Below, in pieces: positions 1 to 28,821 of a DNA stretch of 36,265 nt (its first letter is position 1; every line of letters begins with the position of its first letter). Under the pieces are notes generated by a model. The model was not told where the DNA came from and searched no databases. It saw nothing but the letters and a program-made list of their open reading frames with translations. The stretch spans positions 1 to 36,265 of the forward strand of contig CALXLE010000072.1 in assembly GCA_944389115.1 (NCBI GenBank). The letters are read 5' to 3'. The stretch is from an uncultured Spirochaetaceae bacterium (GTDB lineage: Bacteria > Spirochaetota > Spirochaetia > Sphaerochaetales > Sphaerochaetaceae). The position numbers were made by a program, and so were the translations under genes.

Positions 1-2
1 AG

Positions 3-629
3 AGGTGTAAGGAGGCCATTGCGGAGATCAAGCTCGAAAATATCCGTGCAAAGAAACTTGATGTAACAGAGGAATCCGACTGGATCTCAATCTATAAGGA
101 CGTGATGGCAGAAGAAGGTAGTGTTGATGTCGTAGTGAACAATGCAGGTGTCAATATCCGCCATGATATCGAAGAATGCTCTGTAGAGGACTGGGATAAG
201 ATGTTCCAGATAAATGTCAGGAGCGTATTCCTGTCCATCAAGCATGCAATTCCTATTATGAAAGCCCAAGGAGGCGGGGCGATAATCAATATATCATCGG
301 TATGCGGACTTGTCGGGCATAGATATACAAATGAATCCTATACAGCATCAAAAGGCGCAGTGACGATGCTTACCAAGAGCATTGCCTCACGCTATGGCAA
401 ATACAATATAAGATGCAATTCAGTTCATCCAAGCACTGTAAAAACTGGATTGGTGAATGGATTCCTATCAAATCCTGACCGCATGAGGGAAAGGATTGAG
501 GAAGTTCCTCTCGGGCATCTTGCTACTCCTGAAGATGTAGCCGCAGCAGTTGGTTTCCTGGCAAGCGACGAAGCCTCATTCCTGAATGGTGTGCAGCTCC
601 CTGTCGATGGCGGAACGACCTGTGATTGA
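3..629 (+). CDS. Short-chain dehydrogenase/reductase, 5' end outside window
   Basis: This is the C-terminal 208 residues of a classical SDR, an NAD(P)-dependent oxidoreductase of FabG type. The frame is open from base 3, so the gene begins before the window; the GTG/ATG at 102-107 is internal. Seen: LDVTEE (the usual end of beta-3), the NNAG motif near visible residue 46, the catalytic Ser in INISS near 98, the YTASK catalytic Tyr/Lys near 113, and the C-terminal PVDGG motif. The N-terminal TGxxxGxG cofactor loop is not in view. The substrate cannot be read from sequence; sugar or polyol oxidation is common for this type. It converges on the tct operon, separated by a perfect hairpin. Confidence 0.93.
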   Translation, partial: RCKEAIAEIKLENIRAKKLDVTEESDWISIYKDVMAEEGSVDVVVNNAGVNIRHDIEECSVEDWDKMFQINVRSVFLSIKHAIPIMKAQGGGAIINISSVCGLVGHRYTNESYTASKGAVTMLTKSIASRYGKYNIRCNSVHPSTVKTGLVNGFLSNPDRMRERIEEVPLGHLATPEDVAAAVGFLASDEASFLNGVQLPVDGGTTCD

Positions 630-651
630 TAATAATTTACAATAAGAATTT

Positions 652-690
652 ATCTGGCATGACATGCATTGATTCATGCACATGCCAGAT
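652..690. terminator. Perfect 10-bp inverted repeat between convergent genes
   Basis: ATCTGGCATG at 652-661 pairs exactly with CATGCCAGAT at 681-690, and a second smaller pairing (TGCAT/ATGCA) lies in the loop. It sits between the SDR stop and the end of the minus-strand tct operon, where a bidirectional terminator is expected. There is no strong T-run on either side, so it is a terminator-like hairpin rather than a textbook intrinsic terminator. Confidence 0.5.
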
Positions 691-756
691 GATTGCTATT
701 CCCTGATCTTTAGAATCTTTTGTAAAGCGATAGGATTATTGCTTCGTATAGGCAAA

Positions 757-1248
757 CTAATTTATACCATCAGAAAGTATGAAATCACACATCTCCTGAG
801 CGGTCTCAATGACAAACTTCCCTAAAAAGCTTTTTTTATGGGGCTTTTCTCCAAGGACAATATCAAATGGCTCCGGAGTTTCATCGCTGCTTATACGGCA
901 GATAACGCTTAAAATCCGTCCTTGAGATCCTTCTGAAATCACAGGGACGGCCTTCAGGGAAGGATCTCTCCGGATTTCCTTGAATAGATCCTCCCCTATA
1001 ATGAAGACACGGTTGCCTGCTTTTTCAATGCAGACAAGATAATTATTGCCCTGATCAGATACAAATCGTCTGATTATCCGCTTATCAGCAGCAGGAAGCA
1101 AATGGCCATATAGATTGAAATTCCGCAGAACCATAGCATACTTCCTTTCACTGTCTGCCTTATTTTTCCTCGCTGTACGGAAATTATATATATTAATAAC
1201 CGTAAGCGGGATTACTATAACAATCAGTACAATCTGCAGAACGGTCAC
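757..1248 (-). CDS. Small membrane-anchored protein of unknown function, last gene of tct operon
   Basis: I do not recognise the family. The chosen start is the GTG at 1248: AGGAG lies six bases upstream and the neighbouring oxidoreductase stops at 1265, leaving a 16-base gap. A longer open frame to 1356 exists but would overlap that gene by about 90 bases and lacks such a site. The 163-residue product begins with one strongly hydrophobic helix (about residues 3-22), then a basic stretch, then a soluble alpha/beta-looking domain of about 130 residues. This suggests a single-pass inner-membrane protein with a cytoplasmic domain. No catalytic motif is visible. Its position implies co-transcription with the tripartite transporter. 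Confidence 0.7.
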   Translation of the reverse strand: MTVLQIVLIVIVIPLTVINIYNFRTARKNKADSERKYAMVLRNFNLYGHLLPAADKRIIRRFVSDQGNNYLVCIEKAGNRVFIIGEDLFKEIRRDPSLKAVPVISEGSQGRILSVICRISSDETPEPFDIVLGEKPHKKSFLGKFVIETAQEMCDFILSDGIN

Positions 1249-1264
1249 AGCACACTCCTGTTCC

Positions 1265-2641
1265 TCAGAAATTCTTTTCAGAATCAACCATGCGCTTGAG
1301 ATCAGAGCCAGAGAAATCCACCATGTCCATGGTAATGACACTCCCGGCAGAAACATCCTTCAGCAACTTCTTCTCTGCAATAAGGTAATAAGGGGCACTT
1401 CCAGCAGGAGCAGATGAAATTGGTTCCAGCGTTACATAGACATCATTTATACATCTATGATGTGTATGCAGGCTGAATATCTCTCCTTTATGGAAATCCC
1501 GCTCTGCTCTTACAACCATAGTCGACACATTGCTGCATCGTTCATAACCGGAAAGATTGAGATAGTATGCCTGCAGCACAGACATGGGGGCCTCCATTCC
1601 CATGAAATGATATGGAAGATAAAGAGCGAGGTACTTGCCATTGCTGCTGACGACATGGCCCTTTCCTTTCAGAATATCCATTAATACCTTGTCCTCAACC
1701 TTTACTATTGCAAATACTCCTCCTGCGAAACTCACCTCATCAAACCGATGAAGACAGTTGAATGTATCAAGCACTCCAGACTTCTCAATAAGCCCTCCAT
1801 CCTCCTTGAGAGCATAGACATCCGCCAACTCCGTAACATTGATCAATGGATAATTCAATCTTGGAGTTGACGGTACAAGTCCCGTAGCGTTGCTAACGAC
1901 ATTCATCTCATTGTAATCCGGTACAGCGAATTGAGGGTAAGCAGAAAGGAGCCTACTCCTATTCTCAAGAGTATTTCTCATATCTGTCCCGATATGCCAA
2001 TACTGTGCAAGCTCAGGGATCACTGCCTCCTGATCCCTGTATCTGAAGCGGCCTGTATCGATATCGTAGACAAAGTCATATTCGCTGGACTTACCGGCAC
2101 ATATTATCTCAAGCCCTAATGACTCAATATATGATAGCCAGTTTATCAGATTTGCAGGCTGATCACCTATCGCCAGTGTATATACAACCCCCATTTTCTT
2201 AGAGAGTTTATATAGATAAGGACCTGCAATGACGTCAGCTTCTTTTGAAACCATTGCGACATGTTTGCCTGCAAGAATACATTGTTCCGCAAAAAGAGCA
2301 CTCTTCTCAGGGTTTCCTGTTGCTTCAACAACGACATCCGCATCAGAGGAAGGAACAAGCGAAGCATCATCGACAACGATAATCGCATCGGCAGGAGCAT
2401 TCTTCATATCATTCTCAGTCTTGCAAGGACAGATTTTATCCATGCTAAAACCAAGACTCACAAGCATATCAACGCTTTTCTGGATATCAAGATCGCAAAC
2501 AACACGAAGCGAAAGCAGATCCTCCATCATTGCACACTGAGAAATGAAGGTATATCCGAATGTACCATTAGCACCAAGAATCGCAGTTTTGCATTTTCTT
2601 TTATCTTTGGCTGCAGAAAATATGTTTTTGAAATTAATCAT
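1265..2641 (-). CDS. NAD(P)-binding oxidoreductase with C-terminal SAF domain (COG4091 / DRL-like)
   Basis: A 458-residue protein. The N-terminus has a Rossmann fold (GANGTFG at residues 23-29, then VVCDLD and VVVEATGNP), as in the 'predicted homoserine dehydrogenase' family COG4091. The last 80 or so residues resemble a SAF domain (LLKDVSAGSVIT). This family includes DRL, the DXR-like enzyme of Brucella, but most members sit in catabolic loci and are uncharacterised, so neither homoserine dehydrogenase nor DXR activity should be assumed. The start ATG overlaps the tctA stop in an ATGA junction, so translation is coupled and the substrate is probably derived from what TctABC imports (inference). 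Confidence 0.85.
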   Translation of the reverse strand: MINFKNIFSAAKDKRKCKTAILGANGTFGYTFISQCAMMEDLLSLRVVCDLDIQKSVDMLVSLGFSMDKICPCKTENDMKNAPADAIIVVDDASLVPSSDADVVVEATGNPEKSALFAEQCILAGKHVAMVSKEADVIAGPYLYKLSKKMGVVYTLAIGDQPANLINWLSYIESLGLEIICAGKSSEYDFVYDIDTGRFRYRDQEAVIPELAQYWHIGTDMRNTLENRSRLLSAYPQFAVPDYNEMNVVSNATGLVPSTPRLNYPLINVTELADVYALKEDGGLIEKSGVLDTFNCLHRFDEVSFAGGVFAIVKVEDKVLMDILKGKGHVVSSNGKYLALYLPYHFMGMEAPMSVLQAYYLNLSGYERCSNVSTMVVRAERDFHKGEIFSLHTHHRCINDVYVTLEPISSAPAGSAPYYLIAEKKLLKDVSAGSVITMDMVDFSGSDLKRMVDSEKNF

Positions 2642-4146
2642 GCTTCCGAACCCTTCCTTTTGCTTAGCATTGATTTGATTACAGGTCCCAGAAGTACTGC
2701 AATCGTCAAGATGACTATCACACAGGATATTGGTCTGGTAAGAAATACCGTGGCATCTCCCTGAGATATTCCAAGCGCAAGACGCAGCTGAAGCTCAAGT
2801 GTCGGAGACAATACGAATGCAAGCAGCAATGGTGCTACGGAGAATCCATATCTGCAGAGATAATATGATATCAATCCGAATACAAGCATCACACCGACAT
2901 CAAAGATATTGTTGTTGCATGAATATGCACCAATAACACAGATTGTCATGATTATAGGAATAAGAGTTTTCGTCGAAATCTTAAGTATCGAGACCAAAGC
3001 TGGGATCATAAGGGTTCCTGCTATAAAGCACAGAACATTCCCGATATACATTGATGCAATTAAGCCCCATGCAAACTCTGGATTATTCTCGAAAAGAAGC
3101 GGCCCCGGATGGAGTCCCCACATCATAAGTCCTCCAAGTAGAACTGCCGATGTTGCGCTTCCAGGGATTCCAAGGCTAAGCAAAGGAACAAAAGAACCTA
3201 CAGCAGCTGCATTATTGGCAGATTCGGATGATGCGATTCCTGTAATCTCTCCTGTACCGAGGAATTCCTTCCTCTTTCCAATCTTCTTCTCAACAAGATA
3301 ACTTATGAACGCCGCTGTAGTTCCACCTGCACCAGGAAGGAAACCAACAAGATTTCCAATTATTCCACTACGAATGGAGACTGGGAATATACTCTTGAAT
3401 TCCTCTTTTGTCAGCATGCTCTCCTTTATTGAGATTTTGGTAAGCAAGCTAACATCATTCTCTTTCTTTGCCGTTGCCATATCAACAAGCTGGCAGAAAC
3501 CGAACATACCGATAATCAGCGGGATGAATGAAATTCCGGAATAGAGATTATAATTACCGAATGCAAATCTGATCTGTCCAGTTGCTGAATCTGCTCCAAT
3601 GGTTGCAAGAATCATACCGACAGCTGCGCTGATCAATCCAAGAAGCGGATTATCTCCAAGTATCCATCCGATAGAAGTGAGCGCAAAGAATATCAATGCT
3701 GCGGACTCAGGTGGACCGAATTTAAGACCAACCTCAGCCATTATCGGAGCAAAGAATGTCAAAAATATTATTCCAACTACACCACCAATAAATGAAGATA
3801 TATTTGATGCAGCAAGCGCTTTTCCTCCTTTTCCCTTCATTGCAAGCGGATAACCATCAAGTGCAGTACAAAGAGCAGAAGAATCGCCTGGAATATTCAG
3901 AAGAGTAGCTGAATATGCTCCTCCGAACATATCTCCATAATATATTCCTGCAAGCATGATTATTGCCATGGTAGGATCCATCTTGAATGTCATAGGCAAC
4001 AGGAGCGCTACACCTGCTGCAGCTCCGATACCCGGCATTGCACCAACGATAATCCCAAGAACTCCACCGACAACCGTTGCAAGCATATTATCGAGACTTA
4101 TAACAGTCTGGAAACCAAACAAAAGACTCTGTATATTTTCAATCAT
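2638..4146 (-). CDS. tctA: Tripartite tricarboxylate transporter, large permease TctA
   Basis: A 502-residue integral membrane protein of the TctA family, the large membrane subunit of a TTT secondary transporter that uses a periplasmic binding protein and an ion gradient. Seen: the conserved N-terminal block MPGIGAAAGVALLLP, then YYGDMFGGAYSATLLNIPG, and LSLGIPGSATSAVLLG in the second half; the two related halves are characteristic. Length is normal for the family. AGGAAGG lies five bases before the ATG. It follows tctB by about ten bases and overlaps the oxidoreductase by four. The substrate is some carboxylate; citrate is only the namesake. Confidence 0.96.
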   Translation of the reverse strand: MIENIQSLLFGFQTVISLDNMLATVVGGVLGIIVGAMPGIGAAAGVALLLPMTFKMDPTMAIIMLAGIYYGDMFGGAYSATLLNIPGDSSALCTALDGYPLAMKGKGGKALAASNISSFIGGVVGIIFLTFFAPIMAEVGLKFGPPESAALIFFALTSIGWILGDNPLLGLISAAVGMILATIGADSATGQIRFAFGNYNLYSGISFIPLIIGMFGFCQLVDMATAKKENDVSLLTKISIKESMLTKEEFKSIFPVSIRSGIIGNLVGFLPGAGGTTAAFISYLVEKKIGKRKEFLGTGEITGIASSESANNAAAVGSFVPLLSLGIPGSATSAVLLGGLMMWGLHPGPLLFENNPEFAWGLIASMYIGNVLCFIAGTLMIPALVSILKISTKTLIPIIMTICVIGAYSCNNNIFDVGVMLVFGLISYYLCRYGFSVAPLLLAFVLSPTLELQLRLALGISQGDATVFLTRPISCVIVILTIAVLLGPVIKSMLSKRKGSEA

Positions 4147-4156
4147 AGTAACCTTC

Positions 4157-4624
4157 CTAGAACAATCCCTTTGGGAATGGAATATTCAGCCATGCGACAA
4201 AGATTGAATACAAGATACCTGTCGTGACCACACTAGTAAGAAATGCCCTCAGAGCTGGTCTCCGGCTAATAAAGAACAACCATACGAAGCATGTTAGGAA
4301 TACACATGGAATAAATCCTAGATATTCAAGTACAAACATGCTTCCAAAACCATATAATGTAACTGCAATTGGCCTAAGTACTCTAGGAACCCAGCCAAGC
4401 ATTATATATTCATCAGGTCCCTCGAACTTTTCGCCATTCAGCGGTTCTTTCCTCTTTATACGCAGAACAATATCAAGAACACAGCATAATAATAGGATCA
4501 ATCCTCCGATTATTGGAAACAGACCACCACCAGGCGCCTGACCTGTCCATACGCCATAATCAACAGCTCCCTTCACAATCCATAATATGGAGAGAGCACT
4601 CAATGCAATCTCAATAACTAACAT
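4157..4624 (-). CDS. tctB: Tripartite tricarboxylate transporter, small permease TctB
   Basis: The ATG at 4624 is preferred because AAGGAT stands just upstream; an open frame continues to 4720 but that part reads through the tctC-tctB hairpin. The 155-residue product is hydrophobic with about four membrane segments, a basic loop (RIKRKE) after the second, and the size of TctB proteins. TctB pairs with TctA in the inner membrane. It lies 64 bases after tctC and about ten before tctA. TctB sequences are poorly conserved, so the call rests on size, topology and position between tctC and tctA. Confidence 0.9.
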   Translation of the reverse strand: MLVIEIALSALSILWIVKGAVDYGVWTGQAPGGGLFPIIGGLILLLCCVLDIVLRIKRKEPLNGEKFEGPDEYIMLGWVPRVLRPIAVTLYGFGSMFVLEYLGFIPCVFLTCFVWLFFISRRPALRAFLTSVVTTGILYSIFVAWLNIPFPKGLF

Positions 4625-4651
4625 ATTGTATCCTTTTTTGAAGAAGAGAGA

Positions 4652-4679
4652 GCCAGAAGGCCAAGGCTGACCTCCTGGC
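4652..4679 (-). terminator. Intercistronic hairpin between tctC and tctB
   Basis: On the minus strand GCCAGGAGG pairs with CCTTCTGGC (nine pairs, one G-U) around a ten-base loop, in the 64-base gap after the tctC stop. No long U-run follows immediately. Such hairpins after binding-protein genes usually protect or attenuate so that more binding protein than permease is made; that role is inferred. Confidence 0.55.
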
Positions 4680-4688
4680 AATAAATCA

Positions 4689-5669
4689 TTAGAAGACTTC
4701 CATTCCGTTGGATTTCGCAAACTCTACAAGATTAGCTTCATGATCGTCGAGGTATACAGCAAAATCGTCTGCAGCGAGGAATGTTGGAGTAAGGAAATTG
4801 GAATCTATGTAGTTCTTATTCCATTCCTCAGTCTGGCAAACCTGCTCGAGGATATCAGACCAGTAAAGCTGGACATCACGGCTCATTCCTTCAGGGCCAA
4901 CAATTCCACGAAGCTGCTCGACCTGGCAAGCAGGATATCCCAGCTCTGTAAATGTTGGAACCTCAGCAAATATTCCAGAGAGCCTTTCAGGAGTGAAAGT
5001 ACCAAGGACGCGGACTCTACCCCCTTCTACCAGACCTACAACCTCTGAAGGATTAGCAATTGCAAAATCAATATGACCTCCAAGAAGTGCGGAGAATATC
5101 TCGGAAGAAGCAAAGTAAGCTGTATGATTGAACTGTGTTCCTGTTTCCCTTTCAAGGATTGCAAGCGTCATGGCATCCATATCATCACAGCAACCGATGG
5201 TCATACTTGCAGGATTCTCTTTTATCGCCTTAGCAACATCTTCCCAGCTCTGGAATGGGCTTTCTGTTCTCGTTACAAGTGTCTGAGCATCTGTTGCAAC
5301 ACATGCAATCGGTGTCCAAGGCTCTCTGCCCTTTGGAATAATATCTGTGGTATGGATAAGAAGACAATGTGTTGAATTTATTGTCATAAGGGCATAGTCT
5401 TTATCCTGCTTCTGATTAGTATATGCAATACCGACAGCACCACCGCCGCCCGCCTTGTTAACAACATTTACAGGCTCCGGAACGAGATTATGTATGTTGA
5501 TTACATCGGTAATGTTTCTAGCTAGAACATCGGATCCGCCACCTGCCGATCCCAGTGCTACCAATTCAACAGCGCCACTAGGATATACAGCGTTTTCCTT
5601 TGTCCCACTAGCAAATAATCCAGTTACAACCAAAACAGACATCAAAACTATGAAAAGACTCTTTCTCAT
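4689..5669 (-). CDS. tctC: Tripartite tricarboxylate transporter substrate-binding protein TctC
   Basis: A 326-residue periplasmic binding protein of the TctC/Bug family. The N-terminus is a signal peptide (basic MRK, hydrophobic core, cleavage probably near LFASG) with no lipobox cysteine. The family signature follows, GSAGGGSDVLARNI near residues 35-50, then VVNKAGGGG and IGYTNQ-like segments. It captures a carboxylate and delivers it to TctAB. AAGGAGG lies five bases before the ATG. It is the first gene of the operon, directly behind a sigma-54 promoter, which suggests strong substrate-induced expression. The ligand cannot be read from the sequence. Confidence 0.95.
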   Translation of the reverse strand: MRKSLFIVLMSVLVVTGLFASGTKENAVYPSGAVELVALGSAGGGSDVLARNITDVINIHNLVPEPVNVVNKAGGGGAVGIAYTNQKQDKDYALMTINSTHCLLIHTTDIIPKGREPWTPIACVATDAQTLVTRTESPFQSWEDVAKAIKENPASMTIGCCDDMDAMTLAILERETGTQFNHTAYFASSEIFSALLGGHIDFAIANPSEVVGLVEGGRVRVLGTFTPERLSGIFAEVPTFTELGYPACQVEQLRGIVGPEGMSRDVQLYWSDILEQVCQTEEWNKNYIDSNFLTPTFLAADDFAVYLDDHEANLVEFAKSNGMEVF

Positions 5670-5698
5670 AGTACCTCCTTTGTTTTACTCTTTTATTT

Positions 5699-5713
5699 GC
5701 AATAGATGTGCCA
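5699..5713 (-). promoter_or_regulatory. Sigma-54 (RpoN) promoter of the tct operon
   Basis: On the minus strand TGGCAC (5713-5708) is followed after five bases by TTGC (5702-5699) and then A. The GG and GC doublets are exactly ten bases apart, matching the TGGCAC-N5-TTGCW consensus. It lies about 30 bases before the tctC start and behind an adjacent sigma-54 activator gene. Confidence 0.88.
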
Positions 5714-5778
5714 AACTTAAGATCTAGGAAAAAGATACAGATAATCTAAAGATAAAGATAAAAATTTGGGCTATTATA

Positions 5779-5817
5779 TGTAGCAACTGCTGTCTCTAGT
5801 GTTGCATATGCTACAAC
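5779..5817. promoter_or_regulatory. Probable upstream activator sites for the PrpR_N-type regulator
   Basis: TGTAGCA (5779-5785) and TGCTACA (5809-5815) are exact inverted repeats, and GTTG-N9-CAAC spans 5801-5817, giving three GTTG half-sites in 39 bases. The cluster is 66-105 bases upstream of the sigma-54 promoter, the usual place for enhancer sites, and overlaps the 3' end of the regulator gene. Assignment to this regulator is inferred. Confidence 0.65.
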
Positions 5818-7784
5818 AATCCATATTTCCTAAGCTTCCTGTAAAGAGTACTTCTATCTACCCCTAGCCTCAATGAAGCTTGACTCTTATTGCCTCCGCA
5901 TTCAGACAGGACTGCGATAAGCATATCTCTTTCATCAACAGGTTCATTTACTCTCTCCTGCTGCCGGAAAAACCCTATATCAATTGATTTCATTGTAATG
6001 ACAGAATCAAACACCATAGCACTAAGCCGTTCTGAAAGGTTTCTAAGCTGCCTTACGTTTCCTGGCCATTGGAGTGATTCCAGATAAGGGAATATATCTG
6101 GTTCAATCATATGCTTGCATGTACCATTCTTTTTATCGAAATTCGATAGAAAAGCATCCATCATAGCGGGTATATCGGAAACATGGTCTCTCAATGGCGG
6201 AATAACCAAACGAAGAACATCGAGACGATAGAAGAGATCCTCGCGGAATTTTTTCATAGTAACAAGATTCTCGATATCCTGGTTGCTTGCAGCAATTATA
6301 CGGACATCAATCGGAATAACTTCATCATCTCCAAGCCTCATGATAGACCGCTCTGCCAGCACTCTAAGAAGACGCCCCTGCAGGGAATAGCTCATTTCGC
6401 TTATTTCATCAAGAAATAGCGTTCCTCCATGAGCTAGCTCAAACAGACCAGCTTTCCCAGATTTTGAGGCTCCAGTGAACGCACCTTCAACATATCCAAA
6501 AAGTTCACTCTCGAGTATAGATTCAGGAAGTGCTGCACAGTTGACCGCAACAAATGGTTTATTCCTCCTCTCACTTGCATTGTGAATACTTTGCGCAAAA
6601 AGCTCCTTACCGGTGCCAGTTTCACCTAAAATGAGAACGTTAGCATTTACTCGTGAGTAATTCATTGCAAGCTGCTTGATTTCGGTCATCACAGGACTTG
6701 AACCGATAATGTCATCAAATGTATGGCGGGCAACAAGTCCTTTATGTGCTACTGAAACACGTATTTCATTCTCAAGTTTCTGTATATTTGAAAGTTTCTG
6801 CAAGACAACGATACCGGATTCAAAATGGTCTTCAACAAAAATCGGTATCCTATTCACAGCAAGACTAATACCATTGATTTTCACGAAGATGCCAGGCTCC
6901 TCTTGCGTAAGGGTTCTTATAGGTGGATCATTAATCGACGCATCAACTTCCGACAATTTGCTTCCAATAATTTCATGCGAGGGAGTCCCCAATAATGTCT
7001 GAGCATACCTATTGCATATAGTGACAACCTCATCTCTATCACAGGCGATGATTCCTTCATCAATATTCTCTATAACAGCATTGAATTTAGAATATTTTGC
7101 TACTTCTTCAAGTTTTGTCGTATGTATTTTCCATGCTTCATCTATCACCTGTCTTATTGACTGTCTACCAGCCATAATACGGATTCCCTTATATCCCATA
7201 TCATTCGCAAGCGTTACGATCTCATTGCCCCCAACAATAAAACCTGCGCCATCATCAATTGCTTTCTGTATAACAGCTCGCATGTCGGAGTCAAAAACAA
7301 TCTCATAAGTCCGCACCTTTGCATTTACTCCGCGCATCTGTTCCTCGAATCCATATATGACACTTTCAGTCGCAATCAACGCCGCATCCTGATCTCCGTA
7401 TAAGTCATATCCCTCCTGCAGGGCTCGGAAGATATCATAACCTGTCATAGGAATCTCCAGCACTGTAAAAGCACCTTTAATAAGATGATTGAGATATAAG
7501 GCAGTGAGACCTCTAGCTATAATGACATCACCCTGAAGTTCAGAGCTTTTTATACGATCATGAGCGATAAATGACATTCGAAGAGACATATTATGACGCT
7601 GAGGATGCTCGTTGAACGCCTGTTCTACAGCTGGGCCGAGGCTCGTGTAAGGTAATATGAATTCAATAGTAAACATGCATTTTATATTACCATCACATCC
7701 AATGAATGTTATACCTTCCAGTGTTTCTTTCTTCCCCTTTACATAGCCCCTAAGCTTGCTTAATAGATTGGAGGCTCCATCCAT
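5811..7784 (-). CDS. Sigma-54-dependent transcriptional activator with PrpR_N sensor domain
   Basis: A 657-residue enhancer-binding protein. Order of parts: an N-terminal PrpR_N-type ligand domain (about residues 30-215), a PAS-like domain (about 230-340), the AAA+ core with Walker A GETGTGKE near 387, GAFTGA near 433 (the sigma-54 contact loop) and Walker B LFLDE near 454, and a Fis-type HTH at the end. PrpR_N domains bind small organic acids or esters in PrpR and its relatives, so the inducer is probably the TctC ligand or a derivative. It is transcribed in the same direction as tctC, 141 bases upstream, and has its own TATAAT box at 7809-7804. The start at 7784 has only a distant GAGG; a slightly different start is possible. 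Confidence 0.93.
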   Translation of the reverse strand: MDGASNLLSKLRGYVKGKKETLEGITFIGCDGNIKCMFTIEFILPYTSLGPAVEQAFNEHPQRHNMSLRMSFIAHDRIKSSELQGDVIIARGLTALYLNHLIKGAFTVLEIPMTGYDIFRALQEGYDLYGDQDAALIATESVIYGFEEQMRGVNAKVRTYEIVFDSDMRAVIQKAIDDGAGFIVGGNEIVTLANDMGYKGIRIMAGRQSIRQVIDEAWKIHTTKLEEVAKYSKFNAVIENIDEGIIACDRDEVVTICNRYAQTLLGTPSHEIIGSKLSEVDASINDPPIRTLTQEEPGIFVKINGISLAVNRIPIFVEDHFESGIVVLQKLSNIQKLENEIRVSVAHKGLVARHTFDDIIGSSPVMTEIKQLAMNYSRVNANVLILGETGTGKELFAQSIHNASERRNKPFVAVNCAALPESILESELFGYVEGAFTGASKSGKAGLFELAHGGTLFLDEISEMSYSLQGRLLRVLAERSIMRLGDDEVIPIDVRIIAASNQDIENLVTMKKFREDLFYRLDVLRLVIPPLRDHVSDIPAMMDAFLSNFDKKNGTCKHMIEPDIFPYLESLQWPGNVRQLRNLSERLSAMVFDSVITMKSIDIGFFRQQERVNEPVDERDMLIAVLSECGGNKSQASLRLGVDRSTLYRKLRKYGLL

Positions 7785-7803
7785 GGTTTATTGAAAGGAC
7801 CTC

Positions 7804-7809
7804 ATTATA
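7804..7809 (-). promoter_or_regulatory. -10 box of the sigma-54 activator gene
   Basis: TATAAT on the minus strand, about 20 bases before the ATG. No convincing -35 was found at 16-18 bases. A GTTGTTGCA sequence further up (about 7847-7856) resembles the GTTG half-sites near tctC and could serve autoregulation, which is speculative. Confidence 0.4.
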
Positions 7810-7963
7810 GTGCATAACCTCTGGTGTATATATAATAATTCATTTCTGCAACAACTATAGTTTATATAATAGTAAAACTACGCCCTGCTTTAACACATGT
7901 TTACTCAACAAAGACAACCGCTGCTTGTTAACGAAGATACATTATTGCATTAGACTCAGGCTT

Positions 7964-8361
7964 ATGGATGCAAAAGAGCTTACACGCATATTCTGGAACA
8001 ACGTCGACTCATTAAAAAAACAAAGGGAATGACATGGGAGGATTTTGAAGCAGAAACAGCCCATAGCGCCAGATCCATTGCTACAATGAAAACAATGAAT
8101 AAAGCGCCCTCATTCCATTTTGCCTTGGCAATAGCGAAGGCTTTAGGTACAACCGTGGAAGATCTAGCTTCGGAAACCAATAATAAATCATTGCCGGAAG
8201 GAACAATGAGGAACGTGCTTTATAAAATATGCGATAAACTCAACGAAAATGATATCTTCATGCTCGCATGTGTTGCAAAATCAATCAGCGAATCAATGCA
8301 GGCAGAAAAATCCCACTCCCTTGCTGATGCAATGGAAGCGATGAAGAGAAGATATCTCTGA
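7964..8361 (+). CDS. Xre-family HTH protein with frame interrupted at an A7 run
   Basis: Two frames together make one HTH protein. Frame one starts at ATG 7964 (MDAKELTRIFWNNVDSLKK) and stops at TGA 8030-8032. The rest, from ATG 8029 (MTWEDFEAE...) to 8361, is in the -1 frame. Joining them across AAAAAAA at 8014-8020 gives ...SLKKTKGMTWEDFEAET..., with the spacing of a Xre HTH (helices about residues 20-65: TWEDF, SARSIATM, PSFHFALAIAKALGTTVEDL). If only the 8029 ORF is made, it lacks the first helix but keeps 110 residues. The 45-residue C-terminal helical part may be for dimerisation. The A7 run lies in zero frame as A-AAA-AAA, so slippage, decay or a sequencing error are all possible. Confidence 0.65.
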
Positions 8362-8400
8362 TTGTGTAGTTTCCAGAAAGTCAAATCCCATATGAAATTC

Positions 8401-8423
8401 GGCAGAGATTGTGAGACTCTACC
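8401..8423. terminator. Hairpin between convergent HTH and ATPase genes
   Basis: GGCAGAG (8401-8407) pairs with CTCTACC (8417-8423), seven pairs including one G-U, loop nine bases. No T-run follows on either strand. It sits in the 77-base gap between convergent genes, so a weak bidirectional terminator is plausible. Confidence 0.3.
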
Positions 8424-8438
8424 ATAAAGAACATATCA

Positions 8439-9830
8439 TCAAATCACTTCAGAATCATAAATATCTTCAATCGTATATAGTCTGATACTCTTATCATTCT
8501 CTGCCAGCTTTTTGATGTCATCATCAAAACCAGACTTCGAGAAGAACCAATAAAGAAAATTGCCAGCGCCTCCCATCTCTCTTGAATATGATTTCATCAA
8601 ATCGAATTCCTGAGCGTCTATCTTACGTTCTCTGAACTTAACGCTTCCGATAATCGCATCATTGCCGATAGCTGACTTAGCAACAACATCGATCTCGATT
8701 TCATTATGCAAGGTCCTGCTTCCACCCCACCATGTTCCAACCAAACCGAGAGGAAAAGGAAGGTCAGCATACAGCTCAACATATTGCCTGGCAATCTCTT
8801 CAAAGGCCTTGCCCATGTAATCATTCAGAAAAGGTGCAACTACCTTGTCATAGGATTGCGGCATACGTCCGGAAACGATTGTGGAGATATTCCTGACAAC
8901 AAAGAATGAATGAAACCTGAAGAATAGATCGCAAATCCTCCATACACCTTTCTTCTCGCTCTCTCCAAGAGGTACAAGTTTATCAACAACCCCTACCTCC
9001 TTTAGCTTATTGAGATATGCCGGCAATGTTCCTACCTGGATTCCCGCATGAGAAGCAATATCCGCAAGCTTTGTGCAACCACCTGCGATAGCATTCAGGA
9101 TTGAGCTGTATGTAGATACTTCGCTGAACTCTTCCTTAAGATAATTTTCCCTCTCATTGAAAAGCACTGAATTACTATCAAAGATATTATACAGGAGGTT
9201 ATCCTTCAGGCTTAAACTATCATCAAAGAGCTCAAGATAACGAGGAATACCTCCTGTTATCCCATAGACAATGGCTTTATCCGAACAACTATATGCAGGA
9301 ACAAAGAGACTGGAATCAAGATAATCGAAAGGCTTGACATGAAACTGAGCAGTTATGCGGCCATGTAATGGACTCTCCTTGCCAAGAACCTCATCTTCCA
9401 TGAATGAAACAGATGAACCGGATAGAATCAGGAAAAGCTTTGACTCCTTTGCTTCATGATCCAGAATATTCTGGATAATCGAGGAGATTGCATTATCATC
9501 CTTCTTGGCAAGGTAAGGATATTCATCCATAACGAATATAAGTCTGTCATTCATCGAGAATCTGACTATTGCCCGGAATGCTTCAATAAAAGATGGGAAT
9601 GTCACGCTATAACCTAAGAAGACACTGATCTGAGCAGAGAGTTCTGTAAGATTATCTGCAATGGATGATTTCTGGCACGCAAAGAAGATACATCTTCGTC
9701 CTTTTGTAAAATGATTGATCAGCGTTGTTTTCCCGACTCTTCTTCTGCCATAGACCGTTGCGAACTCCAGCTTATCACTGGAATACATCCTTTCAAGTCG
9801 ATTAAGCTCTGCTTCTCTTCCTATGAACAT
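8439..9830 (-). CDS. AAA-family ATPase with C-terminal DUF234-like domain
   Basis: A 463-residue protein starting FIGREAEL, with Walker A GRRRVGKTT near residues 28-36, a Walker B strand RLIFVMDEYPYLAK near 95-110 and SGSSVSFME as a sensor-like segment. A winged-helix part follows (about 230-300: AGIQVGTLPAYLNKL). The last 130 residues match the DUF234 type seen in COG1672 ATPases, with EIDVVA...GSVKFRE, which resembles a PD-(D/E)xK nuclease core. Such proteins occur in many copies in archaea and in gut spirochaetes and have no settled function. AGGAGG precedes the ATG by six bases. It stands alone, with an AT-rich promoter region carrying repeats. Confidence 0.88.
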   Translation of the reverse strand: MFIGREAELNRLERMYSSDKLEFATVYGRRRVGKTTLINHFTKGRRCIFFACQKSSIADNLTELSAQISVFLGYSVTFPSFIEAFRAIVRFSMNDRLIFVMDEYPYLAKKDDNAISSIIQNILDHEAKESKLFLILSGSSVSFMEDEVLGKESPLHGRITAQFHVKPFDYLDSSLFVPAYSCSDKAIVYGITGGIPRYLELFDDSLSLKDNLLYNIFDSNSVLFNERENYLKEEFSEVSTYSSILNAIAGGCTKLADIASHAGIQVGTLPAYLNKLKEVGVVDKLVPLGESEKKGVWRICDLFFRFHSFFVVRNISTIVSGRMPQSYDKVVAPFLNDYMGKAFEEIARQYVELYADLPFPLGLVGTWWGGSRTLHNEIEIDVVAKSAIGNDAIIGSVKFRERKIDAQEFDLMKSYSREMGGAGNFLYWFFSKSGFDDDIKKLAENDKSIRLYTIEDIYDSEVI

Positions 9831-9866
9831 GAAAAACCTCCTGTAGATAATTATAATCGCAGAAGA

Positions 9867-9920
9867 TTTAATATTTCAATATTTAATATTCAGATATTAT
9901 GATTATCATTTTCATCATAA
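9867..9920 (-). promoter_or_regulatory. AT-rich promoter/operator region of the ATPase gene
   Basis: Two tandem 15-base repeats beginning TTTAATATT (9867-9881 and 9882-9896, 12 of 15 identical) are followed by an exact inverted repeat TTATGAT (9897-9903) and ATCATAA (9914-9920). The block lies 37-90 bases upstream of the ATPase start and contains several TATAAT-like sequences. It is a likely promoter with an operator; the binding protein is unknown. Confidence 0.4.
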
Positions 9921-10050
9921 CATATTTTGGAGAAAACAATCGTCGTTAAATGCAAAACATTTTGTTCATGTAAAAGACTCGGGATTATCCATAAGACTCA
10001 GCTGCGATCTCATTAGTGCAATACACCTCACTCCTTCCTAAATTCCTTAT

Positions 10051-10140
10051 CGGAAAACAAGGCCCTCTGCTTGAATTTTCAACCGATCTAGGAATCTGAA
10101 AATGTCACAAGAGGCAGAGTAAAGGACTTCTCCTTTTCCG
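10051..10140. repeat. Nested, co-linear inverted repeat (about 90 bases)
   Basis: Three pairs of arms nest in order: CGGAAAA (10051-10057) with TTTTCCG (10134-10140); CTCTGC (10065-10070) with GCAGAG (10114-10119); ATTTTCA (10075-10081) with TGAAAAT (10097-10103). TTG and CAA also pair between the second and third arms. The RNA from either strand would fold into one long interrupted hairpin. On the minus strand it begins about 70 bases after the hydrolase stop, so it could be a processing or termination structure; a small RNA or a MITE-like element are alternatives. Confidence 0.55.
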
Positions 10141-10211
10141 GCAAAGCTATCCGAGCACATTCTGATATGCTGAATATTGGGGCAACGTTTGAGACAAATT
10201 GTCAAGCGAAA

Positions 10212-11150
10212 TCACTTAAGCAATGCAGAAGAAAGAAATGAGATGGCTGCATTCTCAGCTTCAGAAGACAAACCATGCCCGCCAGGGAATTCCCTGCAGA
10301 CAAATGCATCCGCAGCTCCTGCGCTCTCATATGATGTTTTGACTTTCGAACAAAGCTTTCTAACACTGGATGCTGGAAAGATTGGATCATCTGCAGAATA
10401 GAACAAAGCAAAAGGCTTGGGGGCTATCTGTGAGATGACATCATTCATATCCATATCAGATGAGAGAAGGGAGGGAAGATACATAGCGAAATTATGGTTG
10501 ATGCATGCACGCTGAAGGTCTGCTACAATAGCAGCTCCACAGTTGCACACCGCAGCCTTCACCCTTGGATCATACCAGCAAAGCCAGAGAGCCTCCTGTC
10601 CGCCAAGCGAATGTCCCATTGCTCCGATTCTGCTGGCATCAATCTCTGGTAGCGATGATAGGATATCCACAGCCCTGGAATAATCAAAAATATACTTAGC
10701 CTGCAGTGTAGATCCTCTGAGAAGGTAATCTATGAAGAGATGCCTTTCATAAGCTGCTCCATCCAGAAAAGGATTTGCAACCCGCTCATACTCCAGCGGG
10801 CGGCGGCTCTCAAATCCAAGACAATCTGGACAGATTACAGCAAAGCCTGCTTTACACAAGGAAACTGCAAAAGCACCTGCCCCATTTCTGTAGAACCCTG
10901 CAGGCTCAGACTTTCCGATAAAGTACTCATCATTGTGTTGATGGCACGCTACAATACCAGGGAAAGGCCCCTTACCTTCCGGGATAAGAAGATATGCAGA
11001 GACAACCTCTCCTGGCTCTGTCTCATAACAGACTTCTTCTATTGAGTATCCATCCTTACGGATTAACATCTGCCTTCTTGCATCCGTAACAGCCTTTACC
11101 GGAAAAGTGCCAAGAAGCTTAAAAACCATTTCCCTGCTCTTCTGCATCAT
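10212..11150 (-). CDS. Alpha/beta hydrolase (dienelactone hydrolase / acetyl esterase-like)
   Basis: A 312-residue soluble hydrolase. The nucleophile elbow is GHSLGG (about residues 178-183), the likely acid is the Asp in YSADDPIFP, and the His is in PGGHGLSS near the C-terminus, giving a full Ser-Asp-His triad. VSAYLLIPEG near 50 followed by GIVACHQH is typical of the acetyl xylan esterase/dienelactone hydrolase branch. No signal peptide, so it is cytoplasmic. Its first codons overlap the end of the phosphodiesterase gene (ATGA), and an ATG at 11147 is an alternative start because GGAGG lies very close. As the last gene of the transporter operon it probably removes an ester group from the imported compound (inference). 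Confidence 0.85.
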   Translation of the reverse strand: MMQKSREMVFKLLGTFPVKAVTDARRQMLIRKDGYSIEEVCYETEPGEVVSAYLLIPEGKGPFPGIVACHQHNDEYFIGKSEPAGFYRNGAGAFAVSLCKAGFAVICPDCLGFESRRPLEYERVANPFLDGAAYERHLFIDYLLRGSTLQAKYIFDYSRAVDILSSLPEIDASRIGAMGHSLGGQEALWLCWYDPRVKAAVCNCGAAIVADLQRACINHNFAMYLPSLLSSDMDMNDVISQIAPKPFALFYSADDPIFPASSVRKLCSKVKTSYESAGAADAFVCREFPGGHGLSSEAENAAISFLSSALLK

Positions 11151-19444: not shown

Positions 19445-19625
19445 TGTTACCTATTACGGCTTCTGTGGGTAAGAATGTGTTACCTATATCCTACCAGAGG
19501 GAATAGAAAGTGTTACCTTTTATGGGTGCAGATCATATTGTTCTATGTTGGTTTGGCTAATGGTGCCGGCTTGTTTTTGGTTTTTCGTGTCGTCCTCGGT
19601 TGGCGTTTTGGTCCCGTCCCCAACA
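19445..19625 (-). mobile_element. Remnant of an insertion sequence (one terminus and adjoining 3' coding end)
   Basis: TGTTACCT occurs three times in the same orientation, at 19445-19452, 19476 region and 19511-19518, 31 to 35 bases apart; repeated short motifs at an end are typical of IS21-like and some other DDE elements. An open frame ending at 19520 (…TNIEQYDLHP) reads towards this terminus, as the 3' end of a transposase gene would. The other end is not seen, so the element is a fragment and the right boundary, about 19615-19640, is uncertain. The family is a guess. Confidence 0.5.
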
Positions 19626-19883
19626 CTGAATAATCTTTCCTACAGGATATATCATCTCAAGATTGCCAATAGCATGAGCTAGATATTGCTCCCTATACCA
19701 TAATTGCCGATTGAATTCAGGAGAAGAATATAATTGCTTTGAAACTTCATCCATCTCCTGTTTAAGATTCGGAATATTGAGAAATTCTTGTTCTGATTCC
19801 TTTATAAAAGCATTTATATGAGCTTCAGTCAGTTTCCCTTCTCTCGTTTTATTTTGCTTAGACCATCGGGTAATATATTCCAT
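19557..19883 (-). pseudogene. Truncated ORF of unknown function, fused to the IS remnant
   Basis: An ORF of 108 codons beginning MEYITRWSKQNK. The first 90 or so residues look like genuine coding sequence (charged, helical, with QLWYREQYLAHAIGN), but the last 18 (DQNANRGRHEKPKTSRHH) are read from the IS-like segment, so the native C-terminus is missing. It is not recognisable as the N-terminus of an ATPase: there is no Walker A. It might be a separate small gene whose 3' part was deleted together with the front of the ATPase gene. No function is proposed. Confidence 0.45.
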
Positions 19884-19967
19884 ACCTAATATTATACCCA
19901 GTAAATCACCAATGTTCTAAAACTAGGATTTAAACAACTACTCTGCTATTTCATTGATGATAAATAT

Positions 19968-20005
19968 AAAATCGCTGCAAGCTTTTTACTGCCCGCAGCA
20001 ATTTT
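19968..20005 (-). terminator. Rho-independent terminator of the guaA operon
   Basis: On the minus strand AAAATTGCTGC pairs with GCAGCGATTTT (11 pairs, one G-U) around a 16-base loop, followed by ATATTTATC. It begins 33 bases after the guaA stop. Confidence 0.75.
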
Positions 20006-20038
20006 ATTTTACTTAATTATTTATATTATAATTAATTA

Positions 20039-21592
20039 TCACTCCCACTCTATCGTTGCTGGTGGTTTTGATGAGATGTCATAGAGTACTCTGTTCACAC
20101 CTTTAACTTCATTGCAGATACGCAGTGATGCCCGCTGCAGGACGTCATAGGGCATTCTGAACCAGTCAGCTGTCATAGCATCCTCACTGGTAACTGCACG
20201 AAGTGTGCATACCTCTCTGTATGTTCTCTCATCGCCCTGAACACCAACGCTCTTCACAGGAAGAAGGTCCGCGAATGCCTGCCAGATCTTATCATAAAGA
20301 CCTGCCTTGCGGATTTCATCAATGAAGATCGCATCGATCTCGCGAAGCGTATCGAGACGTTCCTTCGTCACTTCCCCAATACATCTTACACCAAGCCCCG
20401 GGCCTGGGAATGGGTGTCTGTAAACAAGCTCATCAGGAAGTCCGAGCTCCTTGCCAAGCTCCCTTACCTCATCCTTGAAAAGTTCCTTCAATGGCTCAAG
20501 AAGCTGCCACTTAAGGTCCTCTGGGAGACCTCCAACATTGTGGTGGGATTTAATCGTTGAAGACGGCCCGCCAGAAGGAGACTTCGACTCTATTACGTCG
20601 GGATAGAGCGTTCCCTGGGCAAGGAAAGATACATCGCCGCACTTCCTTGCTTCCCTGTAGAATATATCGACGAAGATCTTGCCGATTATCTTCCTCTTAG
20701 CCTCAGGCTCTGTAACACCCTTTAATGCTTCAAGGAAATCATTCTCAGCATCAGCATACTGCAGCCTCATATTGAATGTCTTGCCGAAAAGCTCAATTAC
20801 AGACTCTGCCTCATTCTTCCTGAGCATTCCGTTGTTGACGAATACGCATACAAGCTGGTCGCCTATTGCCTTATGGATCAGCGCAGCAGCAACAGAGGAA
20901 TCAACACCGCCAGAAAGTCCGCAGAGAACAATCTTGTCCCCTACCGTCTTCCTTATCTCCTCGACCGCGTCATCGACAAAGGAACCCATATTCCAGTCTG
21001 CCTTCGCCTTGCAGATATCGAGGACAAAATTGCGGATCATAGTGATTCCCTCTGCAGAGTGCACCACCTCTGGATGGAACTGCACTCCATAGAATCTCCG
21101 GTCCCTGTCCTCAGCTACCGTGAACGGGCATGTAGGAGTTGATGAGACTACACGGAATCCAGGGGCGAGCTTGTCAACGGAATCGCCATGGCTCATCCAT
21201 ACCTGACTCTTGTCAGATACATCCTTCAGAAGCTCCGATGATCTATCCGTTATATCGATATTCTGGAGACCATACTCCTTCTTTCCTGACGAAGATACAT
21301 GGCCGCCAAGCACCTCTGTCATGACCTGAAGACCATAGCAGATGCCTAGAACGGGTATACCAAGGCTGAATATTGACTTATCGGGCCTTGGAGAACCCTC
21401 TGCTGTTACAGAGCATGGGCCTCCGGAGAATATGATGCCCTTTGGAGCAATCCTTCTCACCTCATCCGCCGTAATCGTGAAAGGAACAATCTGACTGTAT
21501 ACGCCGCATTCCCTTACACGACGTGCGATAAGCTGACTATACTGGGCTCCGAAATCGAGGACGATGACGGAATCATGATCATTTATGGCCAT
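20039..21592 (-). CDS. guaA: GMP synthase (glutamine-hydrolysing)
   Basis: The ATG at 21592 is chosen because GGAGG lies six bases upstream; a frame to 21643 overlaps the S-component gene end. The 517-residue enzyme converts XMP to GMP with ATP and glutamine. The N-terminal class I amidotransferase has Cys85 in GICYGLQ and His173/Glu175 in QFHPEVVHS; the ATP-pyrophosphatase P-loop is LSGGVDSS at 226-233; the C-terminal dimerisation domain ends in the conserved KPPATIEWE. It is the last gene of the operon, 44 bases after the ECF S component. All catalytic motifs are intact. Confidence 0.98.
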   Translation of the reverse strand: MAINDHDSVIVLDFGAQYSQLIARRVRECGVYSQIVPFTITADEVRRIAPKGIIFSGGPCSVTAEGSPRPDKSIFSLGIPVLGICYGLQVMTEVLGGHVSSSGKKEYGLQNIDITDRSSELLKDVSDKSQVWMSHGDSVDKLAPGFRVVSSTPTCPFTVAEDRDRRFYGVQFHPEVVHSAEGITMIRNFVLDICKAKADWNMGSFVDDAVEEIRKTVGDKIVLCGLSGGVDSSVAAALIHKAIGDQLVCVFVNNGMLRKNEAESVIELFGKTFNMRLQYADAENDFLEALKGVTEPEAKRKIIGKIFVDIFYREARKCGDVSFLAQGTLYPDVIESKSPSGGPSSTIKSHHNVGGLPEDLKWQLLEPLKELFKDEVRELGKELGLPDELVYRHPFPGPGLGVRCIGEVTKERLDTLREIDAIFIDEIRKAGLYDKIWQAFADLLPVKSVGVQGDERTYREVCTLRAVTSEDAMTADWFRMPYDVLQRASLRICNEVKGVNRVLYDISSKPPATIEWE

Positions 21593-21636
21593 GTATGCCT
21601 CCTGATGAAAGTCTATAGGAAACCGGCTTAGCGATT

Positions 21637-22155
21637 CTACCACCTGAGGCTGTCAAGCTGGCGATATGCCTTGCGGACACCTGTATAGAGAAGAAGTCCT
21701 ATCACAGCACCAACTGCGCTCTGCGCAATATTGCCAGGAACTTCAAGGATTGCCTCGGAGAATACCGTCAGTCCGAAAAGTGTCGTAAGGAGAAGATATC
21801 CTCCGGATACAATGACTACAGCAAGCACTGCAGCAAGAATGCACATCGCTACGGACTGGCTGTTCTTCCTGACGACAAGTCCCATGACCAGAGCCTCCAC
21901 TCCATGGACGATGAAGGATATGATTGCCCACTGAGGGAATCCTCCGATCAGGTCCGCGAAGGCAGCTCCAAGTCCACCAGCGATGAATCCGGAGAATGGA
22001 CCGAATGCATATGCGACGAACGTGACTGCAGCATCACAAAGCGAGATATACCCTCCGATAGGAGATGGTATCCTTATAATCAAAGTGAATACAGCAACAA
22101 TAGCTGTCATGATAGCAATCAGGCTGATCCTGAGCGCTGTTCTGTTCCCTGTCAT
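21637..22155 (-). CDS. ECF transporter S component, PF07155-type
   Basis: A 172-residue membrane protein with about five to six helices. It matches the ECF-ribofla_trS family pattern: an opening helix (LIAIMTAIVAVFTLIIRIP), GGYISLCDAAVTFVAYAFGP, then GFIAGGLGAAFADLIGG. S components bind the vitamin or nucleobase; this family is associated with riboflavin, HMP and other small cofactors, so the ligand is open. It begins three bases after the EcfT stop, and guaA follows at 44 bases. The whole module, S+T+fused A, is in one operon, so it is a dedicated (group I) type. Confidence 0.85.
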   Translation of the reverse strand: MTGNRTALRISLIAIMTAIVAVFTLIIRIPSPIGGYISLCDAAVTFVAYAFGPFSGFIAGGLGAAFADLIGGFPQWAIISFIVHGVEALVMGLVVRKNSQSVAMCILAAVLAVVIVSGGYLLLTTLFGLTVFSEAILEVPGNIAQSAVGAVIGLLLYTGVRKAYRQLDSLRW

Positions 22156-22158
22156 ATC

Positions 22159-24953: not shown

Positions 24954-24956
24954 ATC

Positions 24957-28240: not shown

Positions 28241-28303
28241 CTATTTATTTTCCTTCTGGAACAATGTATCTGATAACGAGAACACGATATATTAAGACTA
28301 CGG

Positions 28304-28321
28304 TTTTGTCTATTGACAAAA
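28304..28321. promoter_or_regulatory. Inverted repeat in the helicase upstream region
   Basis: TTTTGTC and GACAAAA are perfect seven-base arms around TATT. The sequence also contains TTGACA at 28313-28318, a consensus -35 on the plus strand, though no good -10 follows. It lies 63-81 bases upstream of the helicase start. An operator or a chance palindrome are both possible. Confidence 0.3.
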
Positions 28322-28334
28322 TGAAGGAGAATCG

Positions 28335-28454
28335 ATGGTAAAGATCATCCAGGGAGATATTACAGAATTAAAAGTTGATGCCATAGTCAATACGGCAAAC
28401 AGCAGCCCAGAATCAAGCTACGTAATCATAATCAGTAATCAGAAGCTCATTTGA
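28335..28454 (+). pseudogene. Truncated macrodomain copy
   Basis: The first 24 codons ([24 protein letters not shown]) are nearly the same as the start of the intact macrodomain gene 530 bases downstream. Nucleotide similarity stops sharply at about 28407, after which the frame runs 15 more codons through the end of the convergent zinc-finger gene and stops at 28454. It keeps a ribosome binding site (AAGGAG five bases before the ATG). This is a partial duplicate broken at the zinc-finger gene; a 39-residue peptide could still be made but would have no fold. Confidence 0.8.
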
Positions 28455-28640: not shown

Positions 28641-28777
28641 ATTACTTCTACCTCCTCGTTTTTCCATCTTCCATGAATCTGGAATCAGAATATCTCTGCC
28701 TGCATTCTTGCAAGCCAATGAGCAGAAAGCACCAGATTCACTGAAAAACTCAATGGTCTGATTCCATTTTCATATTG

Positions 28778-28786
28778 ATTATATCA
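28778..28786 (-). promoter_or_regulatory. Extended -10 promoter upstream of the zinc-finger gene
   Basis: TGATATAAT on the minus strand is a full match to the TGnTATAAT extended -10. Its transcript would carry about 130 bases before the zinc-finger ATG, including a frame without a good start that may be a broken toxin gene. Confidence 0.5.
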
Positions 28787-28821
28787 AAACATCAGAGCCT
28801 CAGTACTAAAGAATGAATAGC

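What the first reader, a model, noticed from the sequence alone, without database searches (positions are those of the whole stretch)
757..5669. TctABC linked to a SAF-domain oxidoreductase and an unknown membrane protein: a possible undescribed catabolic unit
The transporter, a COG4091/DRL-type dehydrogenase (translationally coupled to tctA) and a single-helix membrane protein form one operon under one inducible promoter. This suggests import and first oxidation or reduction of an unidentified carboxylate, with no known downstream enzymes nearby except perhaps the SDR.
Basis: partly seen in the sequence, partly recalled or inferred. Interest (0 to 1): 0.55.

Follow-up and report, generated by a model that had tools for sequence, protein, structure and literature searches.

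The report
Importer-linked sugar-acid dehydrogenase operon
A spirochaete operon couples a carboxylate importer to a little-studied relative of an isoprenoid enzyme; in many other bacteria relatives of this enzyme sit beside genes that break down four-carbon sugar acids, so it is probably the unrecognised first enzyme of such a pathway and not an isoprenoid enzyme.

Summary
The operon is real. On the minus strand a PrpR-type sigma-54 activator is followed by a -24/-12 promoter, tctC, tctB, tctA, a DRL-like oxidoreductase overlapping tctA by 4 bp, and a single-helix protein with a predicted PH-like domain. TctA lies near the oxidoreductase in 19 of 26 genomes of the same family whose loci I read, and in 23 of 80 named loci (Spirochaetota, Pseudomonadota, Bacillota; seven are loci of those genomes). 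The enzyme is unlikely to be DXR-II: residues at K193, T229, R320 are S, D, L, the genome has its own DXR-I, and it falls with the uncharacterised DLO2 group. The new lead is its partners: 47 of 80 named loci carry a 3-oxo-tetronate kinase (OtnK) and 43 an OtnC-like decarboxylase, in compact operons without L-threonate dehydrogenase or OtnI. I propose that DLO2 oxidises an imported C4 sugar acid to the OtnK substrate, standing in for LtnD/DenD and perhaps OtnI. Against: the window's own genome has OtnK on another contig but no clear OtnC, and no activity has been measured.

The parts
5811..7784 (-). PrpR_N-PAS-AAA-HTH_8 sigma-54 activator, first gene upstream of the operon
   Evidence: Pfam Sigma54_activat 229, PrpR_N 83, HTH_8 51 bits; genome has RpoN
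5779..5815 (.). Imperfect inverted repeat, candidate activator-binding site
   Evidence: 12-nt arms, 83% complementary; function inferred, could be chance
5698..5713 (-). -24/-12 (sigma-54) promoter TGGCACATCTATTGCA
   Evidence: 11 of 11 scored positions, 0 of 300 mononucleotide shuffles as good; 21 of 23 comparable gaps score 9 or more
4689..5669 (-). tctC, substrate-binding protein
   Evidence: Pfam TctC 88.8 bits
4157..4624 (-). tctB, small membrane subunit (start revised)
   Evidence: Pfam TctB 56 bits; start from the sequence
2638..4146 (-). tctA, large membrane subunit
   Evidence: Pfam TctA 500 bits
1265..2641 (-). DLO2-type NAD(P)-dependent oxidoreductase, overlaps tctA by ATGA
   Evidence: PF21135 85 bits; model matches 3upl/3upy, TM 0.78-0.83; tree and residues
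757..1248 (-). Single-helix membrane protein with predicted PH-like domain (start revised)
   Evidence: No Pfam match; model pLDDT 85.6, PH-like matches Z up to 6.8
652..690 (.). Hairpin between the operon and the convergent SDR gene, possible terminator
   Evidence: fold -22 kcal/mol for 640-710, z -2.86

Best explanation
The operon imports a hydroxylated C4 sugar acid (a tetronate such as a threonate or erythronate) and starts its breakdown. Shown: gene order, sigma-54 promoter, conserved pairing, partners of relatives. Inferred: TctC binds the acid and TctAB carry it in; the PrpR-type activator senses it or a product and switches the operon on with sigma-54; the DLO2 enzyme oxidises the free, unphosphorylated acid with NAD(P)+ to an oxo-tetronate; OtnK, encoded elsewhere in this genome, phosphorylates it and a decarboxylase yields dihydroxyacetone phosphate. 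As clusters of this kind run without OtnI beside them, the enzyme may give 3-oxo-tetronate directly. The PH-like membrane protein is an accessory of the activator/TctABC module of unknown role.
For: 47 of 80 named loci have OtnK, 43 OtnC, 23 TctA, 66 OtnK or TctA (scores over 150). All 7 linked kinases scanned pass the 3-oxo-tetronate kinase cut-off, 4 of 8 linked aldolases pass the OtnC cut-off. L106 is GntP-DLO-OtnK-OtnC; L087 and L088 (same 10-row clade as the window, support 96) are activator-TctCBA-OtnK-OtnC-DLO. GntP and TctA never co-occur in the 80 and look like alternative importers. OtnI over its cut-off in 6 of 14 genomes and none within the DLO loci; L-threonate dehydrogenase over its cut-off in 3 of 14. 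Residues S and D in place of K193 and T229 of DXR-II fit a substrate without phosphate. In the window's genus OtnK accompanies DLO in 7 of 7 genomes against 3 of 41 without DLO.
Against: No activity, ligand or expression data. The window's genome has OtnK (386 bits, cut-off 350) on another contig beside glpK, and no OtnC over the cut-off (best 100 bits against 250). Two DLO-free genomes (G038, G046) share that OtnK-glpK pair, so it may serve something else. Of the seven genomes whose window-type operon lacks OtnK, OtnK at 300 bits or more is found in G000, G067, G091, G107, G115 and not in G003 (62% complete) and G101; OtnC at 150 bits or more only in G091, G107, G115. 14 of 80 named loci have neither OtnK nor TctA. 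More distant family members sit beside LarA, transketolase or FGGY kinases, so substrates vary over the wider family. The 80 loci are the best of 337, chosen by likeness to the window; no chance level for the linkage was computed.
Confidence: 0.5

Rival explanations
1. The enzyme is an oxido-isomerase: it oxidises a branched or C5 sugar acid and shifts a carbon group, as DXR-type enzymes do in the reverse sense, giving a 3-oxo acid for the DUF1537-family kinase.
For: Whole-fold match to DXR-II; Lys191 kept in 80 of 80 named relatives; no OtnI beside it. The apionate precedent (ApnO, OiaK) is recalled.
Against: The linked kinases score as 3-oxo-tetronate kinases (425-614 bits, cut-off 350) and far below the 3-oxo-isoapionate kinase cut-off (90-143 bits, cut-off 700) where that match was listed.
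Confidence: 0.15
2. It is a sugar-acid dehydrogenase, but for a substrate other than a tetronate in this genus, for instance a C3, C5 or C6 aldonate, with other downstream enzymes.
For: No clear OtnC in this genome; in G045 and G053, of the same genus, the operon lies beside LarA, Fe-ADH, split transketolase and an IolO-like protein.
Against: The window enzyme groups with OtnK-linked L087/L088, whereas G045/G053 rows are far away in the tree.
Confidence: 0.2
3. It is a true DXR-II serving isoprenoid synthesis.
For: Same Pfam family and fold.
Against: K193, T229, R320 replaced; DXR-I homologue present; sits in a sigma-54 transport operon; PMC3847144 reports that four tested DLO1/DLO2 proteins failed to complement a DXR mutant.
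Confidence: 0.03
4. It works as a reductase, removing an oxo acid or aldehyde.
For: Such dehydrogenases are reversible; nothing here fixes the direction.
Against: The linked kinase is named for an oxo acid substrate, so oxidation is the useful direction in those operons (inference).
Confidence: 0.07

Closest known systems
DLO2, DXR-II-like oxidoreductase group 2 (Carretero-Paulet et al. 2013, PMC3847144)
   Same: In the same 88-row clade as the only PF21135 gene of Streptomyces sp. SirexAA-E, a strain listed there under DLO2.
   Different: That paper gives no function. It reports Pro, Ser or Ala at position 229 in DLO2; in my alignment the column holds Asp with Pro one residue before it, a likely one-column difference in alignment.
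Brucella DXR-II (DRL), PDB 3upl/3upy
   Same: Fold over nearly the whole length, TM 0.78-0.83.
   Different: 24% identity in the structural match; K193, T229, R320 are S, D, L.
OtnK/OtnC tetronate pathway (LtnD or DenD, OtnI, OtnK, OtnC)
   Same: OtnK and OtnC beside relatives of the enzyme.
   Different: DLO2 where LtnD/DenD and OtnI would stand; TctABC as importer in part of the loci; the window itself has neither OtnK nor OtnC.
TTT (TctABC) transporters
   Same: All three subunits over Pfam cut-offs.
   Different: Substrate unassigned; bound to a sigma-54 activator and DLO2.

Membership tests
DXR-II (DRL) | DRL catalytic domain | tested here: met
   PF21135 85 bits, cut-off 27
DXR-II (DRL) | Lys191, Lys193 and Thr229 that anchor fosmidomycin, and Arg320 | tested here: not met
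   K, S, D, L in the window
DXR-II (DRL) | groups with proven DXR-II | tested here: inconclusive
   only one DXR-II row and no DLO1 row in the tree; the join of that row with L205 is a long-branch effect
DXR-II (DRL) | converts DXP to MEP | not testable with these tools
   needs complementation or assay
DLO2 | clade membership | tested here: met
   88-row clade (97, starred) with SirexAA-E, whose single PF21135 gene must be the listed one; one reference strain, quick tree
OtnK/OtnC tetronate pathway | 3-oxo-tetronate kinase in the genome | tested here: met
   386 bits, cut-off 350, on contig C1
[quoted passage not shown]
   best 100 bits, cut-off 250; genome about 89% complete
OtnK/OtnC tetronate pathway | oxidation of a tetronate | not testable with these tools
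   needs an assay
TctABC (TTT) transporter | TctA, TctB and TctC subunits | tested here: met
   500, 56, 89 bits, all over cut-off
sigma-54-dependent operon | -24/-12 site, bEBP activator and RpoN | tested here: met
   binding not tested
PH-like domain (membrane protein) | seven-stranded barrel capped by a C-terminal helix | tested here: inconclusive
   predicted from 3 sequences, pLDDT 85.6; Foldseek best E 0.02; Z up to 6.8, a level that may be only a common arrangement

The most novel reading that the evidence does not exclude
DLO2 is a DXR-like oxido-isomerase of sugar-acid catabolism: one enzyme that replaces both the dehydrogenase and the isomerase of tetronate- or apionate-type routes, spread over at least four phyla, and the kind of enzyme from which the isoprenoid DXR-II could have arisen by gaining a phosphate-binding site.
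Probability: 0.15. Interest if true: 0.75.

Novelty: new variant of a known kind. Interest (0 to 1): 0.5.

Why it matters
If true, a group of enzymes named in 2013 without a function gets one; a four-carbon sugar-acid pathway gains an alternative entry enzyme and importer in spirochaetes, clostridia, actinomycetes and proteobacteria; and there is a concrete way to ask how an isoprenoid enzyme could arise from a catabolic dehydrogenase. It also gives ligand candidates for TctC-type binding proteins, many of which have no assigned substrate (recalled).

Tried and rejected
DXR-II: set aside on residues, the resident DXR-I homologue and operon context. The SDR at 3-629 as pathway partner: not supported. 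A 95.8% identical stretch with SDR and membrane protein (window 1-1201) lies at a contig edge of G046; the stretch window 4000-9900 gave only four short weak matches there, so the island is not in that assembly, but the contig breaks inside the membrane protein gene.

My first view that the membrane protein is an unrelated neighbour was wrong. It matches in 36 of 139 genomes. I read the 14 genomes with the strongest matches: 9 have it beside the activator, TctABC or DLO (G000, G058, G067, G133, G003, G094, G093, G126, G092); G129 ends at a contig edge with the same TIM-barrel neighbour as G126 and G133; G046 breaks inside the gene; G047, G135 and G104 do not. G092 and G093 have activator and TctABC but no DLO there, so it follows the activator/TctABC. 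The other 22 genomes were not read.

Second DRL-like gene of Pseudomonas baltica: the frame I took from L205 gave a branch of 6.3 and is not used.

Literature searches: DXR-like + deoxyxylulose + DRL, 3 papers; COG4091, 1; DUF1537 + oxidoreductase + tripartite tricarboxylate, 0; apionate or oxidoisomerase, 1 (listing only); 3-oxo-tetronate + tctC, 0; erythronate, threonate, catabol, kinase, transporter, 9; threonate dehydrogenase or OtnK, 10; SAF domain + oxidoreductase + tripartite tricarboxylate, 0; tripartite tricarboxylate transporter + threonate, 0; DXR-II + threonate, 0. Only open-licence papers are held, so a link published elsewhere is not excluded; Zhang 2016 (DUF1537 kinases) is not held.

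Full report
Source. The window is the whole contig C72 (36,265 bases) of a 2.47 Mb genome in 167 contigs, completeness 89.46. G107, of the same family, has a contig C90 of 26,941 bases that returns as NZ_JAEKNT010000091.1 of Sphaerochaeta sp. S2 with the same length, so the window most likely comes from the Sphaerochaetaceae (inference).

Anatomy. On the minus strand lie a PrpR_N-PAS-AAA-HTH_8 activator, a gap with a -24/-12 site, tctC, tctB, tctA, the oxidoreductase and a membrane protein. The genome has RpoN. Of 23 gaps between such an activator and the next gene, 21 hold a site scoring 9 or more of 11; L161 and L122 do not, the gene start in L036 is uncertain, L037/L038 and L048/L063 are near-duplicates, and the shuffles kept only base composition.

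Conservation in the family. Of 139 genomes 38 match the oxidoreductase; 28 have a best E below 1e-29 and the other 10 are weak partial matches. I read wide surroundings in 26 of the 28 (not G113, G114): TctA lies in the stretch read in 19 (G000, G003, G035, G045, G047, G053, G067, G088, G091, G101, G107, G110, G115, G122, G123, G126, G127, G129, G133) and OtnK in 8 (G055, G088, G097, G109, G110, G115, G122, G123). Several contigs are short, so these are lower bounds.

Named loci. A scan of public genomes confirmed 337 relatives and kept the best 80; L082-L088 are loci of genomes already. With profiles built from the spirochaete genes and scores over 150, 47 of 80 have OtnK, 43 OtnC, 23 TctA, 66 OtnK or TctA, 4 both. 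Clusters named by one scanned member each: GntP permease 27 loci, DeoR regulator 12, PdxA family 9. All 9 PdxA loci have TctA; 22 of the 27 GntP loci have OtnK and none has TctA. Fourteen loci have neither OtnK nor TctA.

What the partners say. All 7 linked kinases scanned pass the NCBIfam 3-oxo-tetronate kinase cut-off of 350 bits (L040 517, L045 425, L046 562, L106 614, L107 565, L120 453, L157 452). Of 8 linked class II aldolases, L046, L095, L106 and L107 pass the OtnC cut-off of 250; L040 (232), L157 (217), L045 (170) and L120 (163) do not. L106 reads GntP-DLO-OtnK-OtnC and L107 OtnK-OtnC-DeoR-GntP-DLO. Fourteen named genomes, picked by me mainly as isolates whose loci carry OtnK, were searched: OtnI passes its cut-off in 6, has sub-threshold matches in 4 and none in 4. 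The L-threonate dehydrogenase passes in 3 of 14, each within about 3 kb of an OtnI (G140, G142, G150); there the DLO cluster would be a parallel route, perhaps for another stereoisomer. All 14 have sub-threshold relatives of that dehydrogenase, as do all 14 control genomes, and the DenD model was not searched, so another tetronate dehydrogenase elsewhere in these genomes is not excluded. In print, the canonical route is LtnD, OtnI, OtnK, OtnC; a three-step bypass without OtnI uses an F_bP_aldolase-type OtnC (passages of PMC12540250). The decarboxylases here are of the Aldolase_II type, that is, of the four-step kind, which is why the missing OtnI is telling.

The enzyme. The model (mean pLDDT 94.8, 40 rows) matches Brucella DXR-II at TM 0.78-0.83. 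At Brucella positions 191, 193, 229 and 320 the window has K, S, D, L; the 80 named relatives have K in 80, S in 76, D in 80, L in 58. Lys191, Lys193 and Thr229 anchor fosmidomycin in DXR-II (PMC3847144; abstract and two results sections read). Changing two of these three, one to an acid, fits a substrate without phosphate (inference). That paper reports Pro, Ser or Ala at 229 in DLO2; my column holds Asp next to a Pro, so the alignments differ by about one column. In a quick tree of 111 rows the window lies in a 10-row spirochaete clade (96, starred) with L087/L088, whose operon is activator-TctCBA-OtnK-OtnC-DLO-RACo; SirexAA-E falls in the same 88-row clade (97, starred). Only one DXR-II row was available.

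The window's own genome. It has one OtnK (386 bits) beside glpK and a FadR-like regulator on contig C1, and no OtnC over the cut-off. In its genus (48 genomes) OtnK at 300 bits or more occurs in 7 of 7 genomes with DLO at 180 bits or more and in 3 of 41 without (Fisher 1.6e-6). The thresholds were set after looking and kinship is ignored. In G038 and G046 the same OtnK-glpK pair exists without a DLO in the assembly.

Membrane protein. A long N-terminal helix, seven strands and a C-terminal helix are predicted. Structural matches are weak; many of the listed ones are PH, PTB or FERM-type domains. It tends to accompany the activator/TctABC module.

Verdict. A real, conserved, sigma-54-type import-and-oxidation operon. 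That the enzyme is a sugar-acid dehydrogenase is firmer than the exact substrate, and the tetronate assignment rests on relatives and not on the window's own neighbours.

Noticed in passing
L055:10779-12077, L058:4061-5359, L059:2805-4091 and 9291-10589, L060, L061, L064: Nine spirochaete homologues next to FGGY-type kinases and Zn-ADHs carry exactly K191, K193, T229, R320 of DXR-II, unlike DLO2. They may act on phosphorylated sugars, or be a branch near DXR-II in a sugar-catabolic setting.
   Followed up: partly
window 757-1248; L193, L201, L202, L203: The PH-like membrane protein accompanies the PrpR-type activator/TctABC module, also where no DLO is present (L202, L203); orientation varies.
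   Followed up: partly
L052:12528-17868, L053:12559-17906: In G045 and G053 the activator-DLO-TctCBA operon adjoins an IolO-like TIM barrel, a LarA-family racemase, an Fe-ADH and a split transketolase.
   Followed up: no
L087:10482, L088:10492 (L040:10229-11869): A RACo/AcsV-like ferredoxin-ASKHA activase follows DLO in two spirochaetes.
   Followed up: no
L034:8701-9153, L035, L036, L037: A small VOC (glyoxalase-like) protein gene overlaps or abuts the end of DLO in four loci.
   Followed up: no
L033:1001-3754: Two DLO genes in tandem (38% and 61% identical to the window's) beside tctA.
   Followed up: no
window 1-10500 against 19500-36265: GC is 0.40-0.43 in the first 10.5 kb and mostly 0.47-0.52 beyond 21 kb, which could mean an acquired island.
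   Followed up: no
L067:7441-8481: A TctC-like binding protein gene (30% identical) without TctA or TctB matches in the stretch read lies one gene from the genome's OtnK.
   Followed up: no
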